Positions 4,939 through 30,649 of a stretch of 35,153 nucleotides of DNA are shown here, in pieces; the first letter of the stretch is position 1; every line of letters starts with the position of its first letter. The stretch comes from a virus, in the IMG/VR virus record IMGVR_UViG_3300046012_000297, positions 1-35,153 of that record; one strand, written 5' to 3'. The notes below the pieces were generated by a model, which did no database searches, was not told the DNA's origin, and saw nothing but the letters and a program-made list of their open reading frames with translations. Both the position numbers and the translations under genes were made by a program.

Positions 4939-5145
4939 TCAGCTCGCCTTGCGAAACGTCGTAACTTTCCGGTAGCCGAGCTTGCTGGCGATACCGTCAG
5001 TCACTGGCGTTTTGCCCGTCAATACTTTGCTTAGAAAAGAAATGCTCACGCCAAGATCGCGGGCCAGTTGGCTCTGCGAACGGCTGTCACTGGCTCGCTT
5101 CTTTAGTTCCGCGAGCATCCTTTCGTGCGTGAGTTCCTTAACCAT
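4939..5145 (-). CDS. Small helix-turn-helix regulator
   Basis: 68 residues from ATG 5145. SQSQLARDLGVSISFLSKVL (residues 23-42) is a clear lambda-repressor-type helix-turn-helix: Q-LA--LGVS---LSKVL. No dimerisation or protease domain follows. The ATG overlaps the integrase stop by 8 bases (ATGGTTAA), so both are made from one mRNA, and its stop codon touches the first base of tRNA-Arg. A Cro-like regulator or excisionase substitute is plausible. An upstream in-frame start at 5181 would extend it inside the integrase gene and is less likely. Confidence 0.8.
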   Translation of the reverse strand: MVKELTHERMLAELKKRASDSRSQSQLARDLGVSISFLSKVLTGKTPVTDGIASKLGYRKVTTFRKAS

Positions 5146-6247
5146 GTCTAGTGTTGTAGCCCTTGGAGGAAACAGTGTCAAGAGTTATTTCACTTATTTT
5201 TTCAACAGGTCTTTTTTGCGGGATCGGATGGGGCGCTTCCAGGGCTTCGAGTGCGGCCATCTTGGTGTCGAATTGCTGGATCGAATAGCGGTCTTGCATG
5301 GCTTGCGAGATGTGGCCGGCAATCTCCTTGCTGACCTGGGGAGAGACAGCAGGATTGCTTAAAAGTTTTGTGATTGCTTGAACTCGGCAATCATACACGC
5401 GGAAGTGCGGAAGTCCAGCTTCTTTTCGGATGCTCTCGAAAGCCGAGCGGATCGCGGTCTGTGGCTCATCGAACAGCCATGGTCCGCCGTTGCTCCTGGG
5501 GCGATGAGGGAGGATGTATTGACTCTCTTGGTTCCCTCCAAGGGCTTCCCATCGGTCAATGATCCAGCACATCGAGTCGTAGCCTGCCCGGTTAAGCGGA
5601 ATGGTGCGGTCGCGGTAATCGTTCTTGGCCCCATCGCGCACGGTGACGCACTTGCGCTGCAAGTCCACATCCCGCCTGCGGACATGGCTCAGCTCCCCAA
5701 AGCCCATAGTCGTGGACAGCATGACGGTGATGCAGTGGGCGGCAAGCTGCCACTTCTTGCGGGTGAACGCCACGCGCCGTAGCCGGTCCTCTTCGTCCAC
5801 GGTGAGCGAATGCCCTGCCCGGTGCTTGGGTACCCGGAGCGGGCGATACAGCTCCTTCAGGCTCTTCCAGCAGCGAGCCTCCTGCATAACCATGCCCAGG
5901 ACGCCGATCTCGCCGTTGATCCGGTACCCGCCGGCCTTCGGGCGCCGGTAGTCCTGATAACCGCGCAGATTACCGATGTGGATGTCTTTTAGGGTGATCG
6001 TTCCGAAGAATGGAAGCAGAGCCTTGATCGCGCAGTCATAGCTGCGAATGGTATTGGGTTTGAGATAGCGGCGATGCTCCGCGAGCCATAGCGCAGAGGC
6101 TCGCGCAAAGGGAAGAGAGGACAGCTCTGATTCTTCCAAGGCACGTATACGCTCCAGTTCGCACAACTTACAGGCAATGTGCGGAATGGCGTGAAGGAGA
6201 GGGGGAAATTCCCGCAGCGTATGTATTGATTCCAAATCGTCTTGCAA
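5138..6247 (-). CDS. Tyrosine recombinase / phage integrase (divergent catalytic residues)
   Basis: 369 residues. The N-terminal core-binding region is about 45-135 (ASALWLAEHRRYLKPNTIRS). The catalytic domain follows: box I reads STTMGFGELSHVRRRDVD, where the usual T-G-M-R-x-G-E has Gly182 in place of catalytic Arg I. K208 (DGAKND) may be the catalytic lysine. Box II reads YDCR instead of HxxR, keeping Arg288 but with Tyr285 for His. GH at 311-312 and the nucleophile Tyr321 in DRYSI are present. The first possible start is TTG at 6247; a stop lies 30 bases upstream and no ATG occurs until far inside. Length and the intact frame suggest a living gene of a divergent clade, but reduced activity is possible. 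It mediates integration or excision if active. Confidence 0.88.
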   Translation of the reverse strand: MQDDLESIHTLREFPPLLHAIPHIACKLCELERIRALEESELSSLPFARASALWLAEHRRYLKPNTIRSYDCAIKALLPFFGTITLKDIHIGNLRGYQDYRRPKAGGYRINGEIGVLGMVMQEARCWKSLKELYRPLRVPKHRAGHSLTVDEEDRLRRVAFTRKKWQLAAHCITVMLSTTMGFGELSHVRRRDVDLQRKCVTVRDGAKNDYRDRTIPLNRAGYDSMCWIIDRWEALGGNQESQYILPHRPRSNGGPWLFDEPQTAIRSAFESIRKEAGLPHFRVYDCRVQAITKLLSNPAVSPQVSKEIAGHISQAMQDRYSIQQFDTKMAALEALEAPHPIPQKRPVEKISEITLDTVSSKGYNTRHG

Positions 6248-8164: not shown

Positions 8165-8362
8165 ATGAGTGAGCACGCATCAATCTGGAAGAAGTGGCGG
8201 AAGAAGCATCTTCTGAGCCAGGACGATATGGCGCGGGCGGTGGGGTTGTGCCGCCGGACGATACAGGGGATCGAGAAGGGGGAGCACATCCCGATTTACT
8301 CGACCCAGCGGAAGTTCCGGGAATTGCGGGAGCGGTACGCGAGGGCAAGAAGTGGCGAGTGA
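8165..8362 (+). CDS. XRE-family helix-turn-helix regulator
   Basis: 65 residues. LLSQDDMARAVGLCRRTIQG and IEKG (about 17-40) form a typical XRE helix-turn-helix: S-x-x-x-M-A-x-x-V-G, R-T-I-x-x-I-E-K-G. The tail is short and basic, with no dimerisation domain. It is the first rightward gene, next to the repeat-bearing control region, so a transcriptional switch role (Cro-like) is a reasonable inference. The next gene overlaps its end by 11 bases. No ribosome binding site precedes its ATG. Confidence 0.8.
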   Translation: MSEHASIWKKWRKKHLLSQDDMARAVGLCRRTIQGIEKGEHIPIYSTQRKFRELRERYARARSGE

Positions 8363-8735
8363 CAAAGCAACAGAAATGACTATTCGCGCCGCGCGTGCTG
8401 CGCATGAGGCCAACCGCATCCTCTGTCTCGCGCTTGGGGACATATCACAGGCGCGCTGGGAAGATGCGCCCGAGTGGCAGAAGGGCAGCGCGATCAACGG
8501 CGTGCGGCTTATCGAATCGAACCCCGACACGACGGCCGAGCAGTCTCATGAATCGTGGCTCGAACAGAAGAGGCGCGAGGGCTGGAAGTATGGACCAGAA
8601 AAGAAGCCCTTCGCCAAAGAGCATCCGTGCTTCGTGCCCTATGGGCAACTGGACCCGGGACAGCGGCTCAAGGATGAGATGTTCGGTCTGGTTGTCCGGG
8701 CCACACTTGGGTTTACGACCGAACCCAAGGAGTGA
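8352..8735 (+). CDS. RyR-domain protein
   Basis: 127 residues from GTG 8352 (alternative ATG at 8376). The body matches the RyR domain found in phage and bacterial proteins and named after ryanodine receptors: AAHEANRILCLALGD, WEDAPEWQKGSAINGVRLI, SHESWLEQKRREGWKYGP, then EHPCFVPYGQLDPGQRLKD. This domain is frequent in phage genomes but its job in bacteria is not established; ligand binding, perhaps of a nucleotide, has been suggested. The GTG lies inside the end of the XRE gene, so translation may be coupled. Confidence 0.85.
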   Translation: MASDKATEMTIRAARAAHEANRILCLALGDISQARWEDAPEWQKGSAINGVRLIESNPDTTAEQSHESWLEQKRREGWKYGPEKKPFAKEHPCFVPYGQLDPGQRLKDEMFGLVVRATLGFTTEPKE

Positions 8736-11042: not shown

Positions 11043-13106
11043 GTGGACGAATTCTGCGCCTATATCGACTCGCTGGTGGACATGGACGCGAACAGCGTCA
11101 ACCGCTACTTTTCCTGGAAGCAGGGCAAACGCCCCAACGACAAGCGCCTGAAGTGGATCGAGCGGTGGGTGGAAAACGAGCAGTTTCTATGCTTCGCATC
11201 GGCGGAATACTTTGTCACCCGCTACGGGAGAATCCGCTCGGCGGAGGAGCGGATCATCAACTTCGAGTACCGCGATGCGCAGCGCATCTTTCACGCCATT
11301 CTGGCCGAGTCCGACCGCTCGCAGGTAGCGATCCAGATGTTTGTGTTGAAGTGCCGGCAATTGGGCGTCTCTACGGTGGTCGCGCTTTACTTCCTGCATC
11401 GCATTCTCTTTCGCCCCAACACCCATGCGGTCATGGCCTCGGTCCAGGCTCAACAGTCGGAAAAGCTGGGCAAGATGATCGACACCACCTGGACGCGCCT
11501 GCCCTTCTGGCTGCCTCCGGCAAAGACGATCCTGAAAGAGCGCGAACCGCAGTGGGCCAACGGATCGGCGCTGTCGATTCAGTCCGGCAACCAGGAAGTC
11601 GGCATCGCGCAAGGCTCGACGCCTACCTGCGTGCATATTTCCGAAGTCGGCGATTACAAGAGCCCGAAGCGAACCCTCGAAGAGGGCCTATTCCCCGCCT
11701 GCCATCCCACGTCAAGCCTGTTCCTGGTGCTCGAAGGCACGGGCAGCACCTCCTCCACGTGGCAGAAGGAGAAGTGGGATTTCTATTCCGCGAACTGGGG
11801 CAACGGAGGCCGCTTCCGGCCGGTGTTTATTCCTCCGGCGTGCGCCGGCGATCTCTACCCCCATCCCGACTGGATGCGGGGCAACCCCATTCCGGAGGCG
11901 TGGCGGCCGATGGAGGAGACGCGGAGGATGCAGCGGCGGGCAGAACTCTATGTGCGCTCGACCGACTATCTGTCCGCGGTGATGGGCGCCGGATGGGCGA
12001 TGGCCCGCGAGTACATGTGGTTTTGGGAGACGCGTTGGAAGGAGGCGGTGGCCTCGCATTCCGAGAAAACGTTTTTGTCGCAGTACGCGTGCTCTCCCGA
12101 GGAGGCGTTCCAGTCGAAGTTCGATCCGGTCTTTACGGATGAAACCATCGAGGTTGTGACGCGCGAGCGCGAGCAGGAGTACAAGGCATACGCCATTACC
12201 GGCAAAACCATTCTGATGGGCCAGGACAACGCGCCCTATCAGCCTGGCCCGGACGATATCGACTGGGACGCGCCGCGCGTGGAGCTTCACTGGGAGGCCA
12301 ACGACGGCAACTGCTATGACTGGGAGCTGGTGCCGCTCATGCCCTTTGACGATTCGGACGATGTGCGCTGCTTCGACAAGCTGCTGATTTTTCAGGAGCC
12401 GCAAGCCGGAGCAACTTATTCCGAGGGGATCGACACAGCGGATGGCCTGGGCCTGCCGAACGAGGACCGGTCAACCGTGAGCGTCCATATCGCGCGGCAG
12501 GGACGAGAGCGGGATGAGCAAGTGGCGGCCTTCACCTCGTTGCGGGTGAACTCAGCGCAAATGTCCAGGATCGCGGCGGCCATCGCGGTCTACTTCACGA
12601 CGGACGGCTCGGGAGGGATCACCTCGGCGAACCCGATGGGAATGCGTTTCATTACCGAGCAGATACGGAAAACGGGAGACGAGTGCCAGCTCCAGCTAAA
12701 GATCATGGGCTTTTACGACCACCACGTCATGCACTTTTACGACGAGAAGGGCAATATCGACCCGAACCGGGGCAACAAAGAGGGCTGGCGCACCTCCAGA
12801 TGGTCGCGCCCGTACCTGTTGACCAAGTTCGTGGAAGCGGTGACCGGGGGCTGGTTCAAGCCTAACTGCCCCATCCTGATCCGGCAGCTCAAGACCTTTG
12901 TGCGCAAGGAAAAGAACGGCATCTCCGAGATGGGCCACGAATCCGGCCAGCACGATGACAATATCTTCTCGAACGCGATGGCGTACCTGACCTCGCACGA
13001 TATGGAAAACACCGCTGCCCGCATGGAGGAGAAGTACCGGCCCAAGGAAGTGCCAAAAGGGCAGGTAGACACGCGCTGGGCCTCGAATAGTGTTTGCATT
13101 AGCTAG
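11043..13106 (+). CDS. Terminase large subunit
   Basis: 687 residues from GTG 11043. The ATPase half has KCRQLGVSTVVALYFLHR (103-120), the usual degenerate Walker A of large terminases, and VHISEVGDY (197-205) as Walker B with catalytic Glu201. The nuclease half has EGIDTADGLG (461-470) with Asp464 as first metal ligand and HDDNIFSNAMA (637-647) as the last acidic motif, so both domains look intact. It cuts and pumps phage DNA into the prohead. The frame remains open with coding-like sequence for 60 codons upstream, without ATG, GTG or TTG; GTG 11043 has no Shine-Dalgarno, while GGAGG at 10942-10946 is well placed for a non-standard ATC start at 10956. The true N-terminus is therefore probably longer. 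Confidence 0.93.
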   Translation: MDEFCAYIDSLVDMDANSVNRYFSWKQGKRPNDKRLKWIERWVENEQFLCFASAEYFVTRYGRIRSAEERIINFEYRDAQRIFHAILAESDRSQVAIQMFVLKCRQLGVSTVVALYFLHRILFRPNTHAVMASVQAQQSEKLGKMIDTTWTRLPFWLPPAKTILKEREPQWANGSALSIQSGNQEVGIAQGSTPTCVHISEVGDYKSPKRTLEEGLFPACHPTSSLFLVLEGTGSTSSTWQKEKWDFYSANWGNGGRFRPVFIPPACAGDLYPHPDWMRGNPIPEAWRPMEETRRMQRRAELYVRSTDYLSAVMGAGWAMAREYMWFWETRWKEAVASHSEKTFLSQYACSPEEAFQSKFDPVFTDETIEVVTREREQEYKAYAITGKTILMGQDNAPYQPGPDDIDWDAPRVELHWEANDGNCYDWELVPLMPFDDSDDVRCFDKLLIFQEPQAGATYSEGIDTADGLGLPNEDRSTVSVHIARQGRERDEQVAAFTSLRVNSAQMSRIAAAIAVYFTTDGSGGITSANPMGMRFITEQIRKTGDECQLQLKIMGFYDHHVMHFYDEKGNIDPNRGNKEGWRTSRWSRPYLLTKFVEAVTGGWFKPNCPILIRQLKTFVRKEKNGISEMGHESGQHDDNIFSNAMAYLTSHDMENTAARMEEKYRPKEVPKGQVDTRWASNSVCIS

Positions 13107-17816: not shown

Positions 17817-19094
17817 ATGGCTCTACCCAACGATCCTCTCTATAACGAACGAGACGCGGCCAGCCGGGACTTGATCCGCTACGGCATCATCTACGATTGC
17901 TTTGGCACGAACTTCCCGCTCATGGGACTGCTCAAGCAGTCGGGAGCGACCGACATTCTCTTCCAGGGAACCGGAGTGGAGAATGCTTTCGTTTACGACT
18001 ACGCGAACGGTTCGGCCACCCAGCCGGGCTCGACCATCACCCCGCAGCGCAAGCAGATGGCGACCGACTCGAAGTTTGACGAGCGGTTCTATCAGGCCAA
18101 CCTGCCGGTGGAAGAGACGGTCTACAAGCTCTACAACGCGCCGGGCGACACGCAGAAATTCTCCCAGGACGATCTCGACACCTACTGTCTGACCAAGAAG
18201 ATCGAATCCATGCTGGAGATGGATGCCTACCGTCACGGCCAGCCATCCTCGGGCAACCCCGGCGGCTCGGCTTCGGGCGTTTCGGATGATCGCAGCGATT
18301 GCATGAACGGCTTCGATGAAGCGTTCAACAACGGTGTCGATTGCTCTCCCTTCGGCAACGTCTACTCGCTTTATGGCTACATCACCCGCAACGGGGTGAC
18401 CGGGCAAGCCTACAATTCAACGCCGTACTACTGCGGCACGGGCGCAGGGACAGCGGCATCGATCACCTGGCCGGTGCTCCAAGGCGCGCTGGCTCAGCTT
18501 TCGGTCGTGGGCGCGAGAGCCAAAGTGGGCTTTACCGGCCCCTTCGGCTGGGGCGCTCTGGCGGTTATGCTGCGCCAGTCCGCCGTGGTGCAACAGCTCA
18601 GCGTTACCGAGGGAACCGACTTCGGGTGGAGGAGCGTGAACTTCGGCGGCATCACCATCCACGAAGACCCGCTCTGCCCCTCTTCGGTGGCCTTCAACTA
18701 TCTTCCCGGCGGAAACCCGGCGGCCTACGGGACAACTTCCCCGGCCAAGTACCTGGACGGCGCGGGATCGAATACCAAGCTGGCCCCGTTCACTTCGCCG
18801 ACCTATACGGTCAACGGCGCGGCGGTGGCGGCGGGAACGCTCTCCCCGACCGGCTCGAACATTCCTTCGGCAACCACCATCAACCCCGGCGAGCTGCTGA
18901 TCTTCGCAGATCCGGAAGTGCTGATGATGACTCCGCCCAAGCCGGGTTCCGGCTGGGAGTGGGACACCCGCGAAGTGCCGATTCCGAACAATATCTCAAC
19001 CAACAACCGGTATCTGAAAGTGGCTACCAACCTGTGGACGCCGCAAGCGCCGCACGGCATGAGCATCTTCGGATTCAAGGGGGTAAGGAGCTAA
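17817..19094 (+). CDS. Probable major capsid protein
   Basis: 425 residues with AAGG about 10 bases before ATG 17817. It follows the scaffold candidate, and its size, mixed alpha/beta character and glycine/alanine-rich body fit a HK97-fold capsid subunit without an N-terminal protease or long delta domain. Features include VYDYANGSATQPGSTITPQR near residues 59-78 and an unusual number of cysteines. Next gene begins 2 bases after its stop with its own AAGGAG. The call is by context; no capsid signature is diagnostic by eye. Confidence 0.75.
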   Translation: MALPNDPLYNERDAASRDLIRYGIIYDCFGTNFPLMGLLKQSGATDILFQGTGVENAFVYDYANGSATQPGSTITPQRKQMATDSKFDERFYQANLPVEETVYKLYNAPGDTQKFSQDDLDTYCLTKKIESMLEMDAYRHGQPSSGNPGGSASGVSDDRSDCMNGFDEAFNNGVDCSPFGNVYSLYGYITRNGVTGQAYNSTPYYCGTGAGTAASITWPVLQGALAQLSVVGARAKVGFTGPFGWGALAVMLRQSAVVQQLSVTEGTDFGWRSVNFGGITIHEDPLCPSSVAFNYLPGGNPAAYGTTSPAKYLDGAGSNTKLAPFTSPTYTVNGAAVAAGTLSPTGSNIPSATTINPGELLIFADPEVLMMTPPKPGSGWEWDTREVPIPNNISTNNRYLKVATNLWTPQAPHGMSIFGFKGVRS

Positions 19095-23722: not shown

Positions 23723-23977
23723 ATGGCGAACGCCGGAGAGCGGCTCGCTGCCGACGTAAAGGATGTTCCGGCGAAGACGCTGGACTCGCTGACCATGGGG
23801 CCGCAACGGCGCTCCCTCGGCAAGTGGGAAGACCAGAAGATCGCGTCCGCGAAGTCGGCATGGGATAACCAGTGGAATGAGGCCAAAGAGATTCTCGGAA
23901 CCAAGAACTCCTCGGCGCAGCCCAAAGATAAGGTGGGCAAGGCTCCGGCGAGGAAGAAGGCCGCGTACAAGCGATAG
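23723..23977 (+). CDS. Small charged protein (84 aa)
   Basis: Begins MANAGERLAADVKDVPAKTL one base after the previous stop. Helical and charged, ending in a Lys/Arg tail (KVGKAPARKKAAYKR) like its neighbour. Its TAG stop overlaps the GTG start of the nozzle-like gene (TAGTG), indicating coupling. Function unknown; a chaperone or assembly partner of the large tail protein is possible. Confidence 0.7.
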   Translation: MANAGERLAADVKDVPAKTLDSLTMGPQRRSLGKWEDQKIASAKSAWDNQWNEAKEILGTKNSSAQPKDKVGKAPARKKAAYKR

Positions 23978-26900
23978 TGGCATCCCAATACCAACGCGAC
24001 GCGAACGGCATCCGCCTGGACATTCAGGGTGGTATGTGCACCGCGCTGTCTCCCGATTTGCTGCCGCCGGGGAAGTACAGCTTTCTGCAGAATGTGCGCC
24101 GGTATCTGCATGGCCGCACGGTAGCCCGCGCGCCGCTTGGCTCCGATGTCCTGCCCTCCGCTCTTGCTTCCGGCCCCACATCCTTTATCCGGATGAACGA
24201 TGCGACGCCGGCCGGACCCGGCTCCGGGTTCGTGCTCATTCTGGGCGCGGCCGGTCAACTGTACGTCAACTCCACCTCCGTAGCGACCGGATTGACCGGC
24301 AACCCTCTTGGCTTCGTCACCTTTCGCCCCAACGCCAGCCCGCAGCCGTGGTGCTATACGGGGGACGGCGCGATGGGCGGAGTCACGCTGACCACCATCT
24401 CGCTCGAAACCGGATCGCCGACCACCTCGCCGTCGAACGGCATGAACAAGGTGCGCTCCGATGGCGTGATATGGAAGACGGGCATCGCCGAACCGCAGAC
24501 CGCGCCCTCGGTCACATTCATTGGCGGCGGCTCCGGCACGACGCAGATTTTCTATCGCTACGTCTATCGCTCCTCGGCAACCGGAGCACTCTCCAACCCA
24601 TCGCCCGAGTCGATTGCTGGGACCAATTCGCAGTCGAGCCCCGCGGAGACGGTTCTCGCTTCCGACTTCGCGACCAAGATCACCTTCAACGCCACGCAAT
24701 GGGCATTTGTGGGAACGCAATTGCGCACCACGGGCAGCGTCTCGCCGGGCACGATCATGGATTACGTGATCGCCCACAACTTCGGATTCTCCATCCCGGC
24801 GGGCGTGAATGTCGATGGGGTGCAGATCGACCTGAATTGGGTAGGCCAGAACGCGGGCACGGGCGTATTGAGCGGGGTTTCGCTCTACTATCTCGGAACG
24901 CCTTTGGGCACGGCCAAGTTTCCCGGAATTCCCAATCAATCCTTTATCGTGGACACGCTGCTCGGCGGCAACTCCGATACCTGGGGTGGAACGCTCACGC
25001 CCGCTATCGTCAACGACGCCAGCTTCGGATTCGGGGTCCAGATCACGACGCAACTGGTGGGCGGGAGCGACCGCTCCTTTCTCGACTACTTCACCATCAC
25101 GGTCTACTATTCCACGCAGAATGCCGATGTGACGCCTTCCGTCTCCTCCGATCCGCAGGTGAATAAGATCGATTACTACCGCATGGGCGGGGCGCTGGCG
25201 AGCTTTACCTATGTGGGGACGGGGCCGAATACCGCGACAGCATTCCTCGACCAATTGAGCGACTTGGCCGCCGTAGACAATCCGCTCCTTCAGTTCGACA
25301 ACTTTGAGCCCTTTCCCTCAATCGACATGCCGCAGGCTGGCGTGGTCAACGTCTCCGCCGGGGCGGTTGCCGGGACGATGGACGTTTCCTGGGTGAGCGG
25401 CAACACGTTCAATGTGCGCTGGCTTCCAGGGACCATCATCGTCATCGCCGGGGTGGCGTACACCTTCTATAACCGCCCATCGAGCACGACGGCGCTCACG
25501 GTGGTGCTCGACGCCAGCATGGTCCTGCCCTCCCCGACAACCAACCTGGCCTATGAGATTCAGGAGCCGGATCTGGCGGCACAGCCCTCCCCGGTCATCT
25601 GGGGTCCGACCCCGGACAATGGCGGCTCCTTCTACTTCGGCCTGGACCCGCTCAATACTGGAGACCTGCTCTGGTCGAAAGGCAACAACTTCGATTCGGC
25701 GCCCGACACGAACCGGCAGGCGGTGACCTCTCCCTCCGAGCCGTTGCAAAACGGAACGATCACCTCGGAGCTGAGTACGGTATTTTCGACGGAGCGGCTC
25801 TGGCTCATCTATCCCAACTTTGCCGACGCCTTGGCAACGATCACAGGCGTGATAGGCCAGCAGTGGACGCTGATTCAATCGGCGGCAACCCGCGGCCTAT
25901 ATATGCGCTACGCCCTCGACGCGCTGGGAAGCCGGATCGCGTGGCGGGCCAAAGACTGTATCGCCATGTCGATGGGCGGCGGGCCGGAGCAGTCGATTAC
26001 CGATGACATCTATAATCTCTTCCCCCATGAAGGCTTCGCGCCATCGCCCGTGACCATCGGCGGCTTCACCGTGCATCCTCCGGACGACACGAAACCGAAT
26101 GCGCAGACGGTCAAGATTGCGCCCGGCTATATCTTCTATAACTATCAGGACACCACGGGAACGCCGCGCACGCTGGTTTATGACATTGAAGGCAAGGGAT
26201 GGGTTGTCGATACTTATAGCCCCACGGTGAACTGCCATCTCTGGGCGGTGGGAGCGGTAGACCTTCTGCTCGCCGGATGCACGGACGGCACGGTACGGGC
26301 ATTGGCCGCCGGGGGCGCGGAAACCGCTACCGCGGTTCTGGCCACCCGGAGCGAGAACGGCGGCGACTCCCGCGCCTTCAAGCGGATCGGGGATGTATTC
26401 GTCAAGGCACTCGTCACCTCCTCGAATCCCGTTACGGTGGCCCTGTGGCAGACGCGGCTGACCATTGCGCTGAGCGGGTTCTCCCCAACCTCGCTTGCCG
26501 GGACAGGCTCATTGCTGCCCTACGTGATCGACTTCACCTCCGGATTCGGCGATGACCTGGACGATATTGCAGCAGTCTTCTCGTGGCCGCTGGGCAATGG
26601 CAACATCCTCGACCTCTGGCAGCCGGATTGGCTGAGCCTGCCGGAGTCGATTCAGGACAGGCCGACCGATTGGGACGATTGCGGGGTGCCGGGAAACAAG
26701 CTGATTCGCGGCATGATTATCGAGATCGACACCCTCAACGCCGCCAAGGCATTGCAGGTAGAGCGCAGCGACAGCGACACTTTGATATCCCCCGATCAGA
26801 CCTCGATTACCGCCAATGGGCAGACGCTGACGCCGTTCACCTTTGAGCCGTTTACCGCGCACCTTCTGCGCATTGTCACGACGGATGGCGTGCCCTGGCG

Positions 26901-27891
26901 GATCTGGGGGGTGAAGTGGATCGTCGATCCGTGGCCCGACTACACCCCGCTATTCAGCGCGTGGTCGAACCTGGGGACGGATGGGGCCAAGTATCTCCGC
27001 GGCCTGGTGATCCCGATGGACACCAACGGAAGCGCGGCCAACTTCAAGATTCTCACCTCGGATGGCGGGAGCGTCAGCTTCTCGGCCACGACCCCCACTG
27101 CCAAGAAGACGCCCGTAGCCTTCGCATTCACGCCTCCCATTGTTGCCCATGAGGTGCAGATTCAGTGCGAATCGAATGCCGCTTTGTGGACTTCCGAGGT
27201 GAAGTGGGACTTCGATCCTTATCCCGAGATCATCCCCGAGTACACCCCCATCATGGAGATTGGAGGGCCGGACAACAAGTTCGTGCAGGGAGTGAAGCTC
27301 ATTGGGGACACGGGCAATGCAGCGGTGGCCTTTCAGGTGCTCTATGACGGCGGGCAGACCGGCCCGACCTTTACCGGAACATTCAACGGCAAGCAGACTC
27401 TAGTATTCTCCTGGACGCCATTTTTGGCGCACGATATCCAGCTCGTTCCCCAGGCCAATGCGCGTATCTGGTGGGGCGGGGTTGGGCAGGGAACAAGCGA
27501 ATGGGTATTTCAACCCTTCCCCGAGTCGCAGAAGCTGTGGCAGACGGAGCTTACCTCGATAGGCGGTAACGGCTGGCAGCACATCCGCGAACTGAATGTC
27601 GAGTATCTATCGACGGCGGAAATCACTCTCGCGTTCACGGTCGATACAGGGAACGGCAGTATTGCGCCAGCAAGCATCACCATTCCCTCATCGAGTGGAG
27701 CGCAGGCCAAGTTAAAGCTGGAGCCGACCGCGAACAAGTGGAAGCTGCTGGCCATGGGAGCGACCTCGACCGCGCCATTCAGCCTCTTTGTCGAAGGCGT
27801 GGAGGTGAAGGCGAAGATGTGGGGGGCGGCGGATGCGTACCGGCTGGCCCATCCCTTCGGCGGACCCAGTAAGGCGGAGGCGACGGTATGA
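23977..27891 (+). CDS. Large tail nozzle-like protein (1304 aa)
   Basis: Starts at GTG 23977. The N-terminal part (GIRLDIQGGMCTALSPDLLP, then LQNVRRYLHGRTVARAPLG) is the style of nozzle or tail-stabilisation proteins of short-tailed phages (T7 gp12, P22 gp10 type), built on beta-propellers with repeated LYV/WYT strands. From about residue 880 four degenerate repeats of some 97 residues follow; the shared core is (K/Q)xxRGxxIxxDT, at about residues 909, 1006, 1102 and 1202. Between them are W-V-K-W-I-V-D-P-W-P-like strands. These repeats look like jelly-roll or carbohydrate-binding modules and may extend the nozzle or touch the cell surface. It overlaps the fibre gene by ATGA. Confidence 0.7.
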   Translation: MASQYQRDANGIRLDIQGGMCTALSPDLLPPGKYSFLQNVRRYLHGRTVARAPLGSDVLPSALASGPTSFIRMNDATPAGPGSGFVLILGAAGQLYVNSTSVATGLTGNPLGFVTFRPNASPQPWCYTGDGAMGGVTLTTISLETGSPTTSPSNGMNKVRSDGVIWKTGIAEPQTAPSVTFIGGGSGTTQIFYRYVYRSSATGALSNPSPESIAGTNSQSSPAETVLASDFATKITFNATQWAFVGTQLRTTGSVSPGTIMDYVIAHNFGFSIPAGVNVDGVQIDLNWVGQNAGTGVLSGVSLYYLGTPLGTAKFPGIPNQSFIVDTLLGGNSDTWGGTLTPAIVNDASFGFGVQITTQLVGGSDRSFLDYFTITVYYSTQNADVTPSVSSDPQVNKIDYYRMGGALASFTYVGTGPNTATAFLDQLSDLAAVDNPLLQFDNFEPFPSIDMPQAGVVNVSAGAVAGTMDVSWVSGNTFNVRWLPGTIIVIAGVAYTFYNRPSSTTALTVVLDASMVLPSPTTNLAYEIQEPDLAAQPSPVIWGPTPDNGGSFYFGLDPLNTGDLLWSKGNNFDSAPDTNRQAVTSPSEPLQNGTITSELSTVFSTERLWLIYPNFADALATITGVIGQQWTLIQSAATRGLYMRYALDALGSRIAWRAKDCIAMSMGGGPEQSITDDIYNLFPHEGFAPSPVTIGGFTVHPPDDTKPNAQTVKIAPGYIFYNYQDTTGTPRTLVYDIEGKGWVVDTYSPTVNCHLWAVGAVDLLLAGCTDGTVRALAAGGAETATAVLATRSENGGDSRAFKRIGDVFVKALVTSSNPVTVALWQTRLTIALSGFSPTSLAGTGSLLPYVIDFTSGFGDDLDDIAAVFSWPLGNGNILDLWQPDWLSLPESIQDRPTDWDDCGVPGNKLIRGMIIEIDTLNAAKALQVERSDSDTLISPDQTSITANGQTLTPFTFEPFTAHLLRIVTTDGVPWRIWGVKWIVDPWPDYTPLFSAWSNLGTDGAKYLRGLVIPMDTNGSAANFKILTSDGGSVSFSATTPTAKKTPVAFAFTPPIVAHEVQIQCESNAALWTSEVKWDFDPYPEIIPEYTPIMEIGGPDNKFVQGVKLIGDTGNAAVAFQVLYDGGQTGPTFTGTFNGKQTLVFSWTPFLAHDIQLVPQANARIWWGGVGQGTSEWVFQPFPESQKLWQTELTSIGGNGWQHIRELNVEYLSTAEITLAFTVDTGNGSIAPASITIPSSSGAQAKLKLEPTANKWKLLAMGATSTAPFSLFVEGVEVKAKMWGAADAYRLAHPFGGPSKAEATV

Positions 27892-29546
27892 CCACGGCCC
27901 TCCAGACGTTTTATCCTAAGATCGCCGCCGATGTGCCGTGGGAGGTGCGGCAACATCTTCAGTTGATTTACCAGAAGCTGAACAACCACGCTCAGGCCAT
28001 CGTTTCGCTGCCGACCGGGAACACGACCACGAACATTACCGAAGTGAATCAATCCACCTCGGGCGGGGGCGGAGGGGGCGGCAGCACTCTTCTCGGATTG
28101 GGCGGTGTCAACAACCAGACCGGCGTTACCGCGTACACCACGCAAAACTCCGATGGCGGCATCCTTATTATCCTCAATGACGCCTCAGCCATTGCGGTGA
28201 CGTTGAATGTGGGCGTGTCGGTTCCTTGGATGGCCTTCATCTCGAATCAAGGCGCGGGCACGGCGACACTGACCCCGCAGTCGGGAACGATCACATATCC
28301 GGGCAATCCGGGAGCGGCCTCGATGCCCCTGCTATCGGGCTACACCGCAATGGTGGCCTTCGACGCGACAAACTTCTGGGCGTGGGCGGAGCCGATGACC
28401 CCGCTCAATACGCCAGCTATATCCCACGAATGGCTGAATAGCTATAACTCGACTACGGGGGCTTTCACGCAGACGCAGCCCGCGTTTACGGATATCAGCG
28501 GCATCGCGCAGGTTGCGCAGGGGGGAACGGGCACGGCCACGCCCTCGCTGGTAGCGGGAACCAACGTAACCATCACGGGTAGCTGGCCGGACCAGACGAT
28601 CAACGCAAGCGGAGGAGGCGGCGCTACTCCGGTTTTCTCGCGGGCCATCTTCACGGCGGCACAGCGACCCTTGGGCAGCGTGTTCCAGAACACTTCGGCC
28701 TTCCCGCTGATCGTGATGTATGTCGATAGCGGAACGCTGGCGGCGGCCAAGGGATTTACCGACGCTTCCGCAACTCCAACCACTCAGGTATGGGGATTGC
28801 AAAGTTTCTCCGGTTCGGGGTTTCAGCCCGCGGCGTTTGTGGTGATGCCGGGGAATTTCTACAAGATCACGGGCGCCACCTTCGGAGCATGGTCAGAGTT
28901 CACGTTCAACACCGGCACTTGGACATCGAGCGGCAACTTATCCGGCTCCAGGACGCTCGGGACCGCGGCGCAGAACACCGGCACGGGTTTCATGCTGGTG
29001 CAGGTATTCACGACCAACACGACCGCGACGAACTCGCTCGCCGTCTTCGTGGACAGCGCAAGCACGCCGGTGGTGCAAACCTTTCAGCAGCAGACGATCA
29101 TCACGACGGGCAATTCTGTCTTATTCCTGGTGCCGCCTAGCTACTTTTACAAGGTGACGAATACCGGCACGGGCACGATTGCAAGCTGGATCGAATACTC
29201 TTCGGCGATTGCCTGCACGGTATCGGCCAACCTGTTCACGGCCCCCGCCACGCGGAGCACGACCGTGAGCAGCGCCACGCCACCCATTGCGTATTCCGTT
29301 CTCAACAATTCCAACAAGTGCAAGTGGGTTGCGGTCGGCATCACCAACACTGCAGCCGGAACGATCATCACCCAGGGCGACACGAACGTTCCCCCGCTCT
29401 TGGCGCAGTGGGAAATGTCGCAGGCGGTGAGCGGCACGCAGCCGGTGTCTGGCATTGGCCTGCACTTGCCCAACGAATTCCTGGCTGCGCGGCACGACAC
29501 GGGAACCAACACCAATACTTTCTGGTACGAGTACGCGCTGGGATGA
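27888..29546 (+). CDS. Tail fibre / receptor-binding protein
   Basis: 552 residues. A helical N-terminus (about 1-40) is followed by a seven-glycine linker (residues 59-65), then beta-rich sequence with DISGIAQVAQGGTGTATPSL and AGTNVTITGSWPDQTINASG, wording typical of phage tail fibres. The C-terminal half has three degenerate repeats starting near residues 250, 352 and 456, each ending in an aromatic F/W-x-E-Y/F strand (AWSEF, SWIEY, FWYEY). Repeat divergence would suit receptor recognition. Overlaps the gene before and after by ATGA. Confidence 0.8.
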   Translation: MTTALQTFYPKIAADVPWEVRQHLQLIYQKLNNHAQAIVSLPTGNTTTNITEVNQSTSGGGGGGGSTLLGLGGVNNQTGVTAYTTQNSDGGILIILNDASAIAVTLNVGVSVPWMAFISNQGAGTATLTPQSGTITYPGNPGAASMPLLSGYTAMVAFDATNFWAWAEPMTPLNTPAISHEWLNSYNSTTGAFTQTQPAFTDISGIAQVAQGGTGTATPSLVAGTNVTITGSWPDQTINASGGGGATPVFSRAIFTAAQRPLGSVFQNTSAFPLIVMYVDSGTLAAAKGFTDASATPTTQVWGLQSFSGSGFQPAAFVVMPGNFYKITGATFGAWSEFTFNTGTWTSSGNLSGSRTLGTAAQNTGTGFMLVQVFTTNTTATNSLAVFVDSASTPVVQTFQQQTIITTGNSVLFLVPPSYFYKVTNTGTGTIASWIEYSSAIACTVSANLFTAPATRSTTVSSATPPIAYSVLNNSNKCKWVAVGITNTAAGTIITQGDTNVPPLLAQWEMSQAVSGTQPVSGIGLHLPNEFLAARHDTGTNTNTFWYEYALG

Positions 29547-30055
29547 GGATGCTATCGCTATTGCTTCTGCTGGCTACGGCCGCTCACGCTGCCGCGGCGC
29601 GGTACCGCCATGACAGCGTTGCGGTGCTGAACGATCTCCGCGCCACTCCGGGGGCGGCGAACGCGCGGCTGGGCAAGGATGAGCTTTGCGCGGCATCGTT
29701 CCGCACGGCGGCATACCGCAGAGTCAGCGCCAGCCTGAAGCGTAAGGTCTGCACGGAGTACGGCATCGCGGCGAAGGATTGCACGGGGCGGAAGTACGAA
29801 ATCGACCACCTTATTTCTCTGGAATTGGCAGGCTCGAATCAGATCGAGAATTTGTGGCCTGAGATGTACTTGCCCCACGGCGGAGCGAAGCAGAAGGACA
29901 TCGTGGAGAACGCGCTGCATCGCATGGTATGCGCGGGAACGATATCTCTGCCCGAAGCGCAGAGCTGCATCGCTCAGGATTGGTATGCCTGCGCGAAACG
30001 GCACGGGATTCGGACAGAGATAGGGCCGCGCCGTAAAACTTTGAAGGCGCAATAG
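29543..30055 (+). CDS. Exported HNH nuclease
   Basis: 170 residues. The first 19 residues (MRMLSLLLLLATAAHAAAA) are a clear signal peptide with a likely cleavage after AHA or AAA. The core motif is YEIDHLISLELAGSNQIENL, with D88-H89 and N99, the form of HNH nucleases of the IDH(I/L)xxLExGGxNxxxNLWP type; VENALHRMVCAGTISLPEAQ follows as in that family. Six cysteines (49, 70, 80, 130, 142, 150) suggest disulfides outside the cytoplasm. It is coupled to the fibre gene by ATGA. A periplasmic or secreted nuclease inside a virion operon is unusual: it might degrade DNA at lysis, act on competing phage DNA, or be a moron for the lysogen. Confidence 0.85.
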   Translation: MRMLSLLLLLATAAHAAAARYRHDSVAVLNDLRATPGAANARLGKDELCAASFRTAAYRRVSASLKRKVCTEYGIAAKDCTGRKYEIDHLISLELAGSNQIENLWPEMYLPHGGAKQKDIVENALHRMVCAGTISLPEAQSCIAQDWYACAKRHGIRTEIGPRRKTLKAQ

Positions 30056-30094: not shown

Positions 30095-30649
30095 GTGTTT
30101 GGAATCGACCAAGGGCCGTCCACGCAGGAGAATACGCAGTACGGCAACCTCACCTCTACCTCTGGTTTCGCGGCCAATGCGGGCGAAGGCGACCTGACGG
30201 CAAGCAGCGACTTTATGAAAAGCATCCTCTCGGGCGACCCGGCGAAGATCGGGCAGGTGCTCGGCCCGCAAATCAGGGCGATTCAGGGCCAGGGCCAGCA
30301 AAAGAAGCAGACGCTGGCGCAGTTCGGCAACCGGGGCGGCGGGACAAACGCGACCGCGCAGACCATCGGCGACAATACGCGCTCCAGCATCAACGATATG
30401 ATTAGTTCGCTCACCGGATCGGCGGTATCCGGCCTCAACAACACAGGCCAGAACCTGCTCGGCATGGGCATGAGCGGCTTCGGGACGGCGTTTGGCGAGG
30501 CCAACACCATGCAGCAACAGCGGGCGGCAAAGTGGAACGACATCTTTAGCAGTATTGGGGACACCGCCGGTATGGTGGCTGGGTTCCCAGGAATCGGCAA
30601 GGGCCTGTCTCAGGGCCTGGATTCTGTTGCGGGAGCCTTCGGGAGCTGA
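30095..30649 (+). CDS. Virion-internal / ejection protein candidate
   Basis: 184 residues from GTG 30095, with AAGGGAGG 6 bases upstream. Rich in Gly, Ser, Gln and Asn; helical stretches (FMKSILSGDPAKIGQVLGPQ) alternate with glycine-rich parts, one of them (GLNNTGQNLLGMGMSGFGTA) membrane-friendly. This resembles small ejection proteins of short-tailed phages (roles like T7 gp14 or P22 gp7) in size, composition and place before two larger internal proteins. No sequence family recognised. Confidence 0.6.
   Translation: MFGIDQGPSTQENTQYGNLTSTSGFAANAGEGDLTASSDFMKSILSGDPAKIGQVLGPQIRAIQGQGQQKKQTLAQFGNRGGGTNATAQTIGDNTRSSINDMISSLTGSAVSGLNNTGQNLLGMGMSGFGTAFGEANTMQQQRAAKWNDIFSSIGDTAGMVAGFPGIGKGLSQGLDSVAGAFGS

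What the first reader, a model, noticed from the sequence alone, without database searches (positions are those of the whole stretch)
29543..30055. Exported HNH nuclease inside the virion gene operon
A signal peptide, six cysteines and an intact HNH core in a gene coupled to the tail fibre. Phage HNH enzymes are normally cytoplasmic. It could clear extracellular or periplasmic DNA, block entry of rival phage DNA, or be carried in the tail tip.
Basis: partly seen in the sequence, partly recalled or inferred. Interest (0 to 1): 0.62.

Follow-up and report, generated by a model that had tools for sequence, protein, structure and literature searches.

The report
Exported phage DNA-cutting enzyme gene
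A temperate virus of an unidentified bacterium carries, squeezed between two virus-particle genes, a gene for a DNA-cutting enzyme built to be shipped out of the bacterial cell; hundreds of uncultured phages carry relatives, but what it is for has not been tested.

Summary
The gene at 29543-30055 is real: 170 aa, overlapping the fibre gene by ATGA, with a Sec-type signal peptide, exactly six mature cysteines and a His-Me/HNH-like core. Nearly all members start with a signal peptide, lipobox or membrane anchor; cysteine numbers are even in 99 of 102, in matched pairs. One correction: H112, which completes the textbook H-N-H by spacing, is not conserved; the first-turn helix position is H/R/K (K116 here), and K118, D119 and E122 are invariant.

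The gene is accessory. Nine related contigs with the same gene order lack it at this site. In unrelated phages it sits at other late-operon sites (TerL-portal, tail chaperone-tape measure, head-tail adaptor) or near ribonucleotide reductase. Most likely it is a late-expressed exported DNase that digests DNA outside the cytoplasm, around lysis (inferred). Blocking rival phage DNA is a live rival; virion carriage has no support. Exported phage DNases have a precedent in streptococcal Spd1/Sda1.

The parts
29543..30055 (+). exported HNH-like (His-Me) nuclease gene, 170 aa
   Evidence: homologs in at least 298 viral contigs and in bacterial genomes
29543..29590 (+). predicted signal peptide MRMLSLLLLLATAAHA, cleavage after AHA (residue 16) or AAA (residue 19, to 29599)
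   Evidence: sequence; hydrophobic N-terminus shared by the family, 47/55 viral homologs vs 87/433 control genes
29795..29935 (+). beta-beta-alpha metal core: E86 D88 H89 (29798-29809), N103 (29849-29851), helix 115-131 with K116, K118, D119, E122 (29888-29908)
   Evidence: invariant columns; AlphaFold2 pLDDT 91.6 with strands 85-89 and 104-108 and helix 115-131
29687..29992 (+). six cysteines 49, 70, 80, 130, 142, 150; predicted pairs 49-130, 70-80, 142-150
   Evidence: co-occurrence and even counts across 102 homologs; the pairing itself is inferred
29543..29546 (+). ATGA start/stop overlap with the fibre gene; no plus-strand promoter-like site found nearby
27888..29546 (+). fibre-like gene: N-terminal ~250 aa conserved in related phages, C-terminal ~300 aa without a detected relative
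30095..30649 (+). conserved virion-block gene that directly follows the fibre gene in most related phages
23977..27891 (+). large tail-block protein used to find related phages
11043..13106 (+). terminase large subunit
   Evidence: PHROG phrog_5989 E 1e-13
5138..6247 (-). integrase (temperate phage)
   Evidence: PHROG phrog_1 E 7e-28

Best explanation
The gene encodes a Sec-exported, disulfide-stabilised endonuclease of the His-Me (beta-beta-alpha metal, HNH-like) fold. It is an accessory (moron-type) gene inserted between the fibre gene and the next virion-block gene of a temperate phage. Having no promoter-like site of its own and overlapping the fibre gene, it should be made with the late genes (inferred), cross the inner membrane, lose its signal peptide, form up to three disulfides and act on DNA outside the cytoplasm. 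The role I think most likely (about 40%) is digesting host DNA spilled at lysis and other extracellular DNA, so that virions disperse and are not trapped. Shown by sequence: the gene, the export signal, the family, the core residues, the accessory status and (for phage homologs) purifying selection. Inferred: catalysis, final location, timing and benefit.
For: Export: signal peptide, lipobox or membrane anchor at the N-terminus of nearly all homologs (control). Oxidised fold: even Cys counts in 99/102, matched pairs. Nuclease: invariant E86, D88, H89, N103, K118, D119, E122; confident model, with Cas8f-HNH (Z 5.1), NucA (3.4), Rhs2-CT (3.0) and pyocin AP41 (2.5) among its weak matches; weak HNH, HNH_5 and Endonuclea_NS_2 Pfam matches in many homologs. 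Accessory: absent from syntenic relatives, while the same query found 43/43 positive-control records. Late context: virion block here; TerL-HNH-portal, HNH-TerL, tail chaperone-like gene-HNH-tape measure and head-tail adaptor contexts elsewhere. Selection: dN/dS 0.09-0.27 in most phage pairs. Soluble form: by a simple rule only 4 of 55 viral homologs show a lipobox, against 23 of 80 bacterial ones.
Against: No activity, localisation or expression data. The third HNH position is Lys here, so catalysis is not assured. Fold matches to solved structures are weak (Foldseek best E 0.82). Some homologs lie downstream of ribonucleotide reductase genes, which is not a late-lysis setting. A few viral homologs look lipid- or membrane-anchored (L014, L019, L024, L026), which fits a cell-surface or periplasmic role better.
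Confidence: 0.5

Rival explanations
1. Periplasmic superinfection exclusion: the exported nuclease cuts DNA of rival phages (or plasmid and transforming DNA) as it crosses the periplasm.
For: Periplasmic location expected in a diderm host; the disulfide-bonded design; anchored forms in some homologs; the phage is temperate (integrase).
Against: No promoter-like site of its own was found and it overlaps the fibre gene, so it is probably not expressed in the lysogen, where exclusion matters most. Many phages are thought to shield their DNA during ejection (general knowledge). No PADLOC match.
Confidence: 0.22
2. Cell-benefit or nutrient role: it breaks down extracellular DNA to nucleotides for the infected cell or lysogen, as bacterial relatives may do.
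For: Relatives are sporadic exported proteins in many bacteria, including Patescibacteria; four phage homologs lie near a gene family that appears to be ribonucleotide reductase small subunit.
Against: Late-operon position in this phage and several others leaves little time for nutrition.
Confidence: 0.15
3. Virion-borne nuclease carried in the tail or ejected with the DNA.
For: Neighbours are virion genes.
Against: The signal peptide would remove it from the cytoplasm, where virions assemble; absent at this site in nine related contigs with the same virion genes; no fixed neighbour in other phages.
Confidence: 0.06
4. Selfish or homing-type insertion, or a decayed passenger with no function.
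For: Inserted gene at a variable site; a different HNH gene, homing-like by eye, sits nearby in relative L175.
Against: Signal peptide and disulfide pairs make no sense for a homing enzyme; purifying selection in phage homologs; conserved core.
Confidence: 0.07

Closest known systems
Streptococcal prophage-encoded extracellular DNases (Spd1, Sda1 and relatives)
   Same: Phage-encoded, secreted DNases; Spd1 was proposed to thin DNA at lysis (Broudy et al. 2002 as cited in PMC2658872; Korczynska et al. 2012 is cited in PMC11596691). That they are beta-beta-alpha metal enzymes is general knowledge.
   Different: No sequence match found. Those are known as virulence cargo, whereas this gene sits between fibre and virion-block genes and belongs to a disulfide-paired family of many uncultured phages.
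Unnamed exported HNH-like family on bacterial chromosomes and plasmids (annotated 'hypothetical protein' or 'HNH endonuclease')
   Same: Same family by sequence: 24-39% identity to plasmid copies, same invariant residues and N-terminal export signals.
   Different: Bacterial copies are more often lipoproteins (23/80 vs 4/55), some have an extra C-terminal domain, and some plasmid copies are followed by a small gene shared between plasmids.
Extracellular NucA-type DNA/RNA non-specific endonucleases
   Same: Exported His-Me fold; weak structural (Z 3.4) and Pfam Endonuclea_NS_2 similarity.
   Different: Different sequence and size; weak matches only.
Cytoplasmic phage HNH enzymes of the packaging module (for example GVE2 HNHE, PMC5304195, listed)
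   Same: Same broad fold class; some homologs of the present family also lie next to TerL.
   Different: Exported, cysteine-paired, no PHROG match.

Membership tests
Exported HNH-like family defined here (alignment A4) | TPG motif, invariant C49/C130, R59, ExDH, N103, KDxxE, W147 | tested here: met
Exported HNH-like family defined here (alignment A4) | N-terminal export signal | tested here: met
   (heuristic; no SignalP)
Exported HNH-like family defined here (alignment A4) | even, paired cysteines | tested here: met
Textbook HNH (PF01844) | profile match above the Pfam cut-off | tested here: not met
   no match for P0001; only weak matches in 68/102 homologs, best E 0.0021
Textbook HNH (PF01844) | H-N-H triad with a conserved third His | tested here: not met
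   H112 column is His in 12/102; helix column H66/R19/K9
His-Me (beta-beta-alpha metal) fold | beta hairpin plus helix carrying DH and N | tested here: inconclusive
   model has strands 85-89 and 104-108 and helix 115-131; solved-structure matches weak, best Z 5.1 to Cas8f-HNH
Spd1/Sda1 prophage DNases | sequence or fold homology | tested here: inconclusive
   not among PDB sequence matches or the listed fold matches
Spd1/Sda1 prophage DNases | secreted and DNase-active | not testable with these tools
   needs a bench assay
Known anti-phage defence protein (PADLOC) | profile match | tested here: not met
   no match in 102 members
Phage virion protein | conserved with the virion genes in related phages | tested here: not met
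   absent in nine relatives at the same site

The most novel reading that the evidence does not exclude
A widespread family of phage-encoded periplasmic nucleases, not found in cultured-phage records, that cut incoming DNA of competing phages in the periplasm: superinfection exclusion at the DNA-transit step.
Probability: 0.2. Interest if true: 0.7.

Novelty: new variant of a known kind. Interest (0 to 1): 0.42.

Why it matters
Phage nucleases are usually read as cytoplasmic tools for packaging, homing or host-DNA breakdown. Here is a coherent exported family in at least 298 uncultured viral contigs, without a hit in about 50,700 phage records by five queries and without a named profile. If active, it would show that many environmental phages act on DNA outside the cell's cytoplasm, affecting lysate DNA, gene transfer or phage competition.

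Tried and rejected
Direct single-sequence scan of viral contigs and tblastn of INPHARED with five family members found nothing; the profile scan was needed. PADLOC: no match. A cassette shared with the fibre C-terminus: rejected, no viral relative of that segment was found and no fibre match beside other copies. Recent acquisition by base composition: no GC step. A conserved partner or immunity gene: none shared across phage contexts beyond close relatives. An RNA structure at the start: none (z 0.81). Literature terms for exported or secreted HNH phage nucleases gave nothing describing this family; two key Spd1/Sda1 structure papers were not held. Host assignment: the gene product 17817-19094 has a 35% relative in one Acidobacteriaceae MAG but none in 396 genomes of the phylum at E 1e-20; host left open. 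PDB families absent from the fold lists are not taken as excluded.

Full report
WHAT IS THERE. The window is a 35,153-base IMG/VR virus record. The ORF at 29543-30055 gives a 170-aa protein whose ATG overlaps the stop of the upstream gene (ATGA). No plus-strand promoter-like site was found around it, and GC content does not change there. The phage is temperate: integrase at 5138-6247 on the minus strand, RecE-like exonuclease, Erf-like annealing protein, and a terminase large subunit at 11043-13106. The gene lies about 16 kb downstream of TerL, in the plus-strand virion block.

WHICH FAMILY. The protein alone matches nothing in Pfam, PHROGs, NCBIfam or PDB sequences and nothing in about 50,700 phage records. 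Plasmid searches did find relatives (38 records, best E 3e-18). In Acidobacteriota 17 of 396 genomes carry one, so the family is sporadic in cells. Four further family members also had no INPHARED match. In BFVD, three uncultured-phage proteins, two named only 'HNHc domain containing', match the model.

EXPORT AND DISULFIDES. Nearly every homolog starts with a hydrophobic export signal (there the start codon giving the most hydrophobic N-terminus was chosen, so a control was needed). With one rule applied to homologs and to other genes on the same contigs, 47 of 55 viral homologs pass against 87 of 433 controls, and 75 of 80 bacterial ones pass. Several failures still look like signal peptides to the eye, so the rule is strict. 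The six cysteines all lie after the signal peptide. C49 and C130 are invariant; C70/C80 and C142/C150 mostly come and go together; 99 of 102 members have an even number in the core. This is what disulfide-bonded extracytoplasmic proteins look like. The rows are related, so this is not 102 independent events.

THE CORE. Invariant residues over 102 members include C49, R59, E86, D88, H89, N103, K118, D119, E122, C130 and W147. H89-N103 has the textbook HNH spacing. H112 would complete the triad by spacing, but that column is His in only 12 members, and the model puts it before the helix. The first-turn helix position is H, R or K (K116 here). I take D88/H89/N103 with the helix residues K118-D119-E122 as the likely active-site set (inferred). 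The AlphaFold2 model is confident (pLDDT 91.6). Its solved-structure matches are weak: Cas8f-HNH Z 5.1, NucA 3.4, Rhs2-CT 3.0, pyocin AP41 2.5. They agree with a His-Me nuclease but do not prove it. Many homologs give weak matches to HNH, HNH_5 and Endonuclea_NS_2.

ACCESSORY STATUS. The large tail-block protein 23977-27888 led to 12 related viral contigs. Across them the order 14198, 17014, 17817, 19096, 19936, 20600, 21937, 23977, fibre N-terminus, 30095 is kept as far as each contig reaches. In the nine that span the site (L175, L176, L178-L184) no HNH homolog is present, and in most the fibre gene abuts the 30095 homolog; L178 and L179 look like the same phage. A profile search of all 12 records found none, while the same query found all 43 positive-control records. 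The fibre C-terminal half also has no detected relative. So this is a variable slot, and the nuclease is cargo in it.

OTHER PHAGES. Homologs sit at different sites: TerL-HNH-portal (L027), HNH-TerL (L025), upstream of a head closure gene (L053); tail chaperone-like gene-HNH-tape measure in a prophage-like region of a Bryobacteraceae MAG (L094, the closest copy in a bacterial genome, 55%), and near a head-tail adaptor (L187). Among 14 non-redundant records with a detectable TerL, 7 have the homolog within 5 kb on the same strand (my count). Others lie near ribonucleotide reductase, endolysin, holin or exonuclease genes. No partner gene is shared widely. On the tree the virus/cell label needs 13 changes against 34 for shuffled labels, with at least 3 forced by well-supported branches: phage clades with some exchange with cells. 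dN/dS is 0.09-0.27 in most phage pairs and 0.50 in one.

HOW IT MOST LIKELY WORKS. Made with late proteins, exported by Sec, oxidised, and active on DNA outside the cytoplasm. Because lysis follows soon after late expression and most phage forms look soluble (4 of 55 with a lipobox against 23 of 80 bacterial ones), I favour digestion of DNA spilled at lysis, as was proposed for Spd1 (Broudy et al. 2002, cited in PMC2658872). Blocking rival DNA in the periplasm comes second. Virion carriage has no support. These roles are inference.

NOVELTY. Exported phage DNases exist (Spd1, Sda1), so the kind is known. A distinct, disulfide-paired, profile-less family spread over hundreds of uncultured phages is a new variant. 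No paper describing it turned up in the searches made, which cover open-licence papers only.

Noticed in passing
8352-8735 (+): Small protein with a Pfam RyR domain (E 8.6e-11); viral homologs (45% identity) sit on L046 and L076, contigs that also carry the exported HNH family.
   Followed up: partly
L184:14101-15021: In a related phage the same slot after the fibre gene holds a fibre-like ORF that itself seems to start with a signal peptide (MRFTVFSVLLAFCLPCVGQ).
   Followed up: no
L175:5705-6865: A 386-aa ordinary Cys-rich HNH (homing-like) gene is inserted just upstream of the fibre gene in a related phage.
   Followed up: no
L003:3648-3968, L006:3630-3953, L008:3518-3916, L012:3488-3883: Bacterial plasmid copies of the nuclease are followed by small genes that are homologous between plasmids (L003-L006 E 3e-8; L008-L012 42%): possible inhibitor or immunity proteins.
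   Followed up: partly
L047, L051, L070, L072: The exported nuclease lies downstream of a gene family of 361-377 aa, probably ribonucleotide reductase small subunit, directly or after one further gene.
   Followed up: partly
L043:7848-10682: A 944-aa viral putative lipoprotein carries the HNH-like domain near its N-terminus.
   Followed up: no
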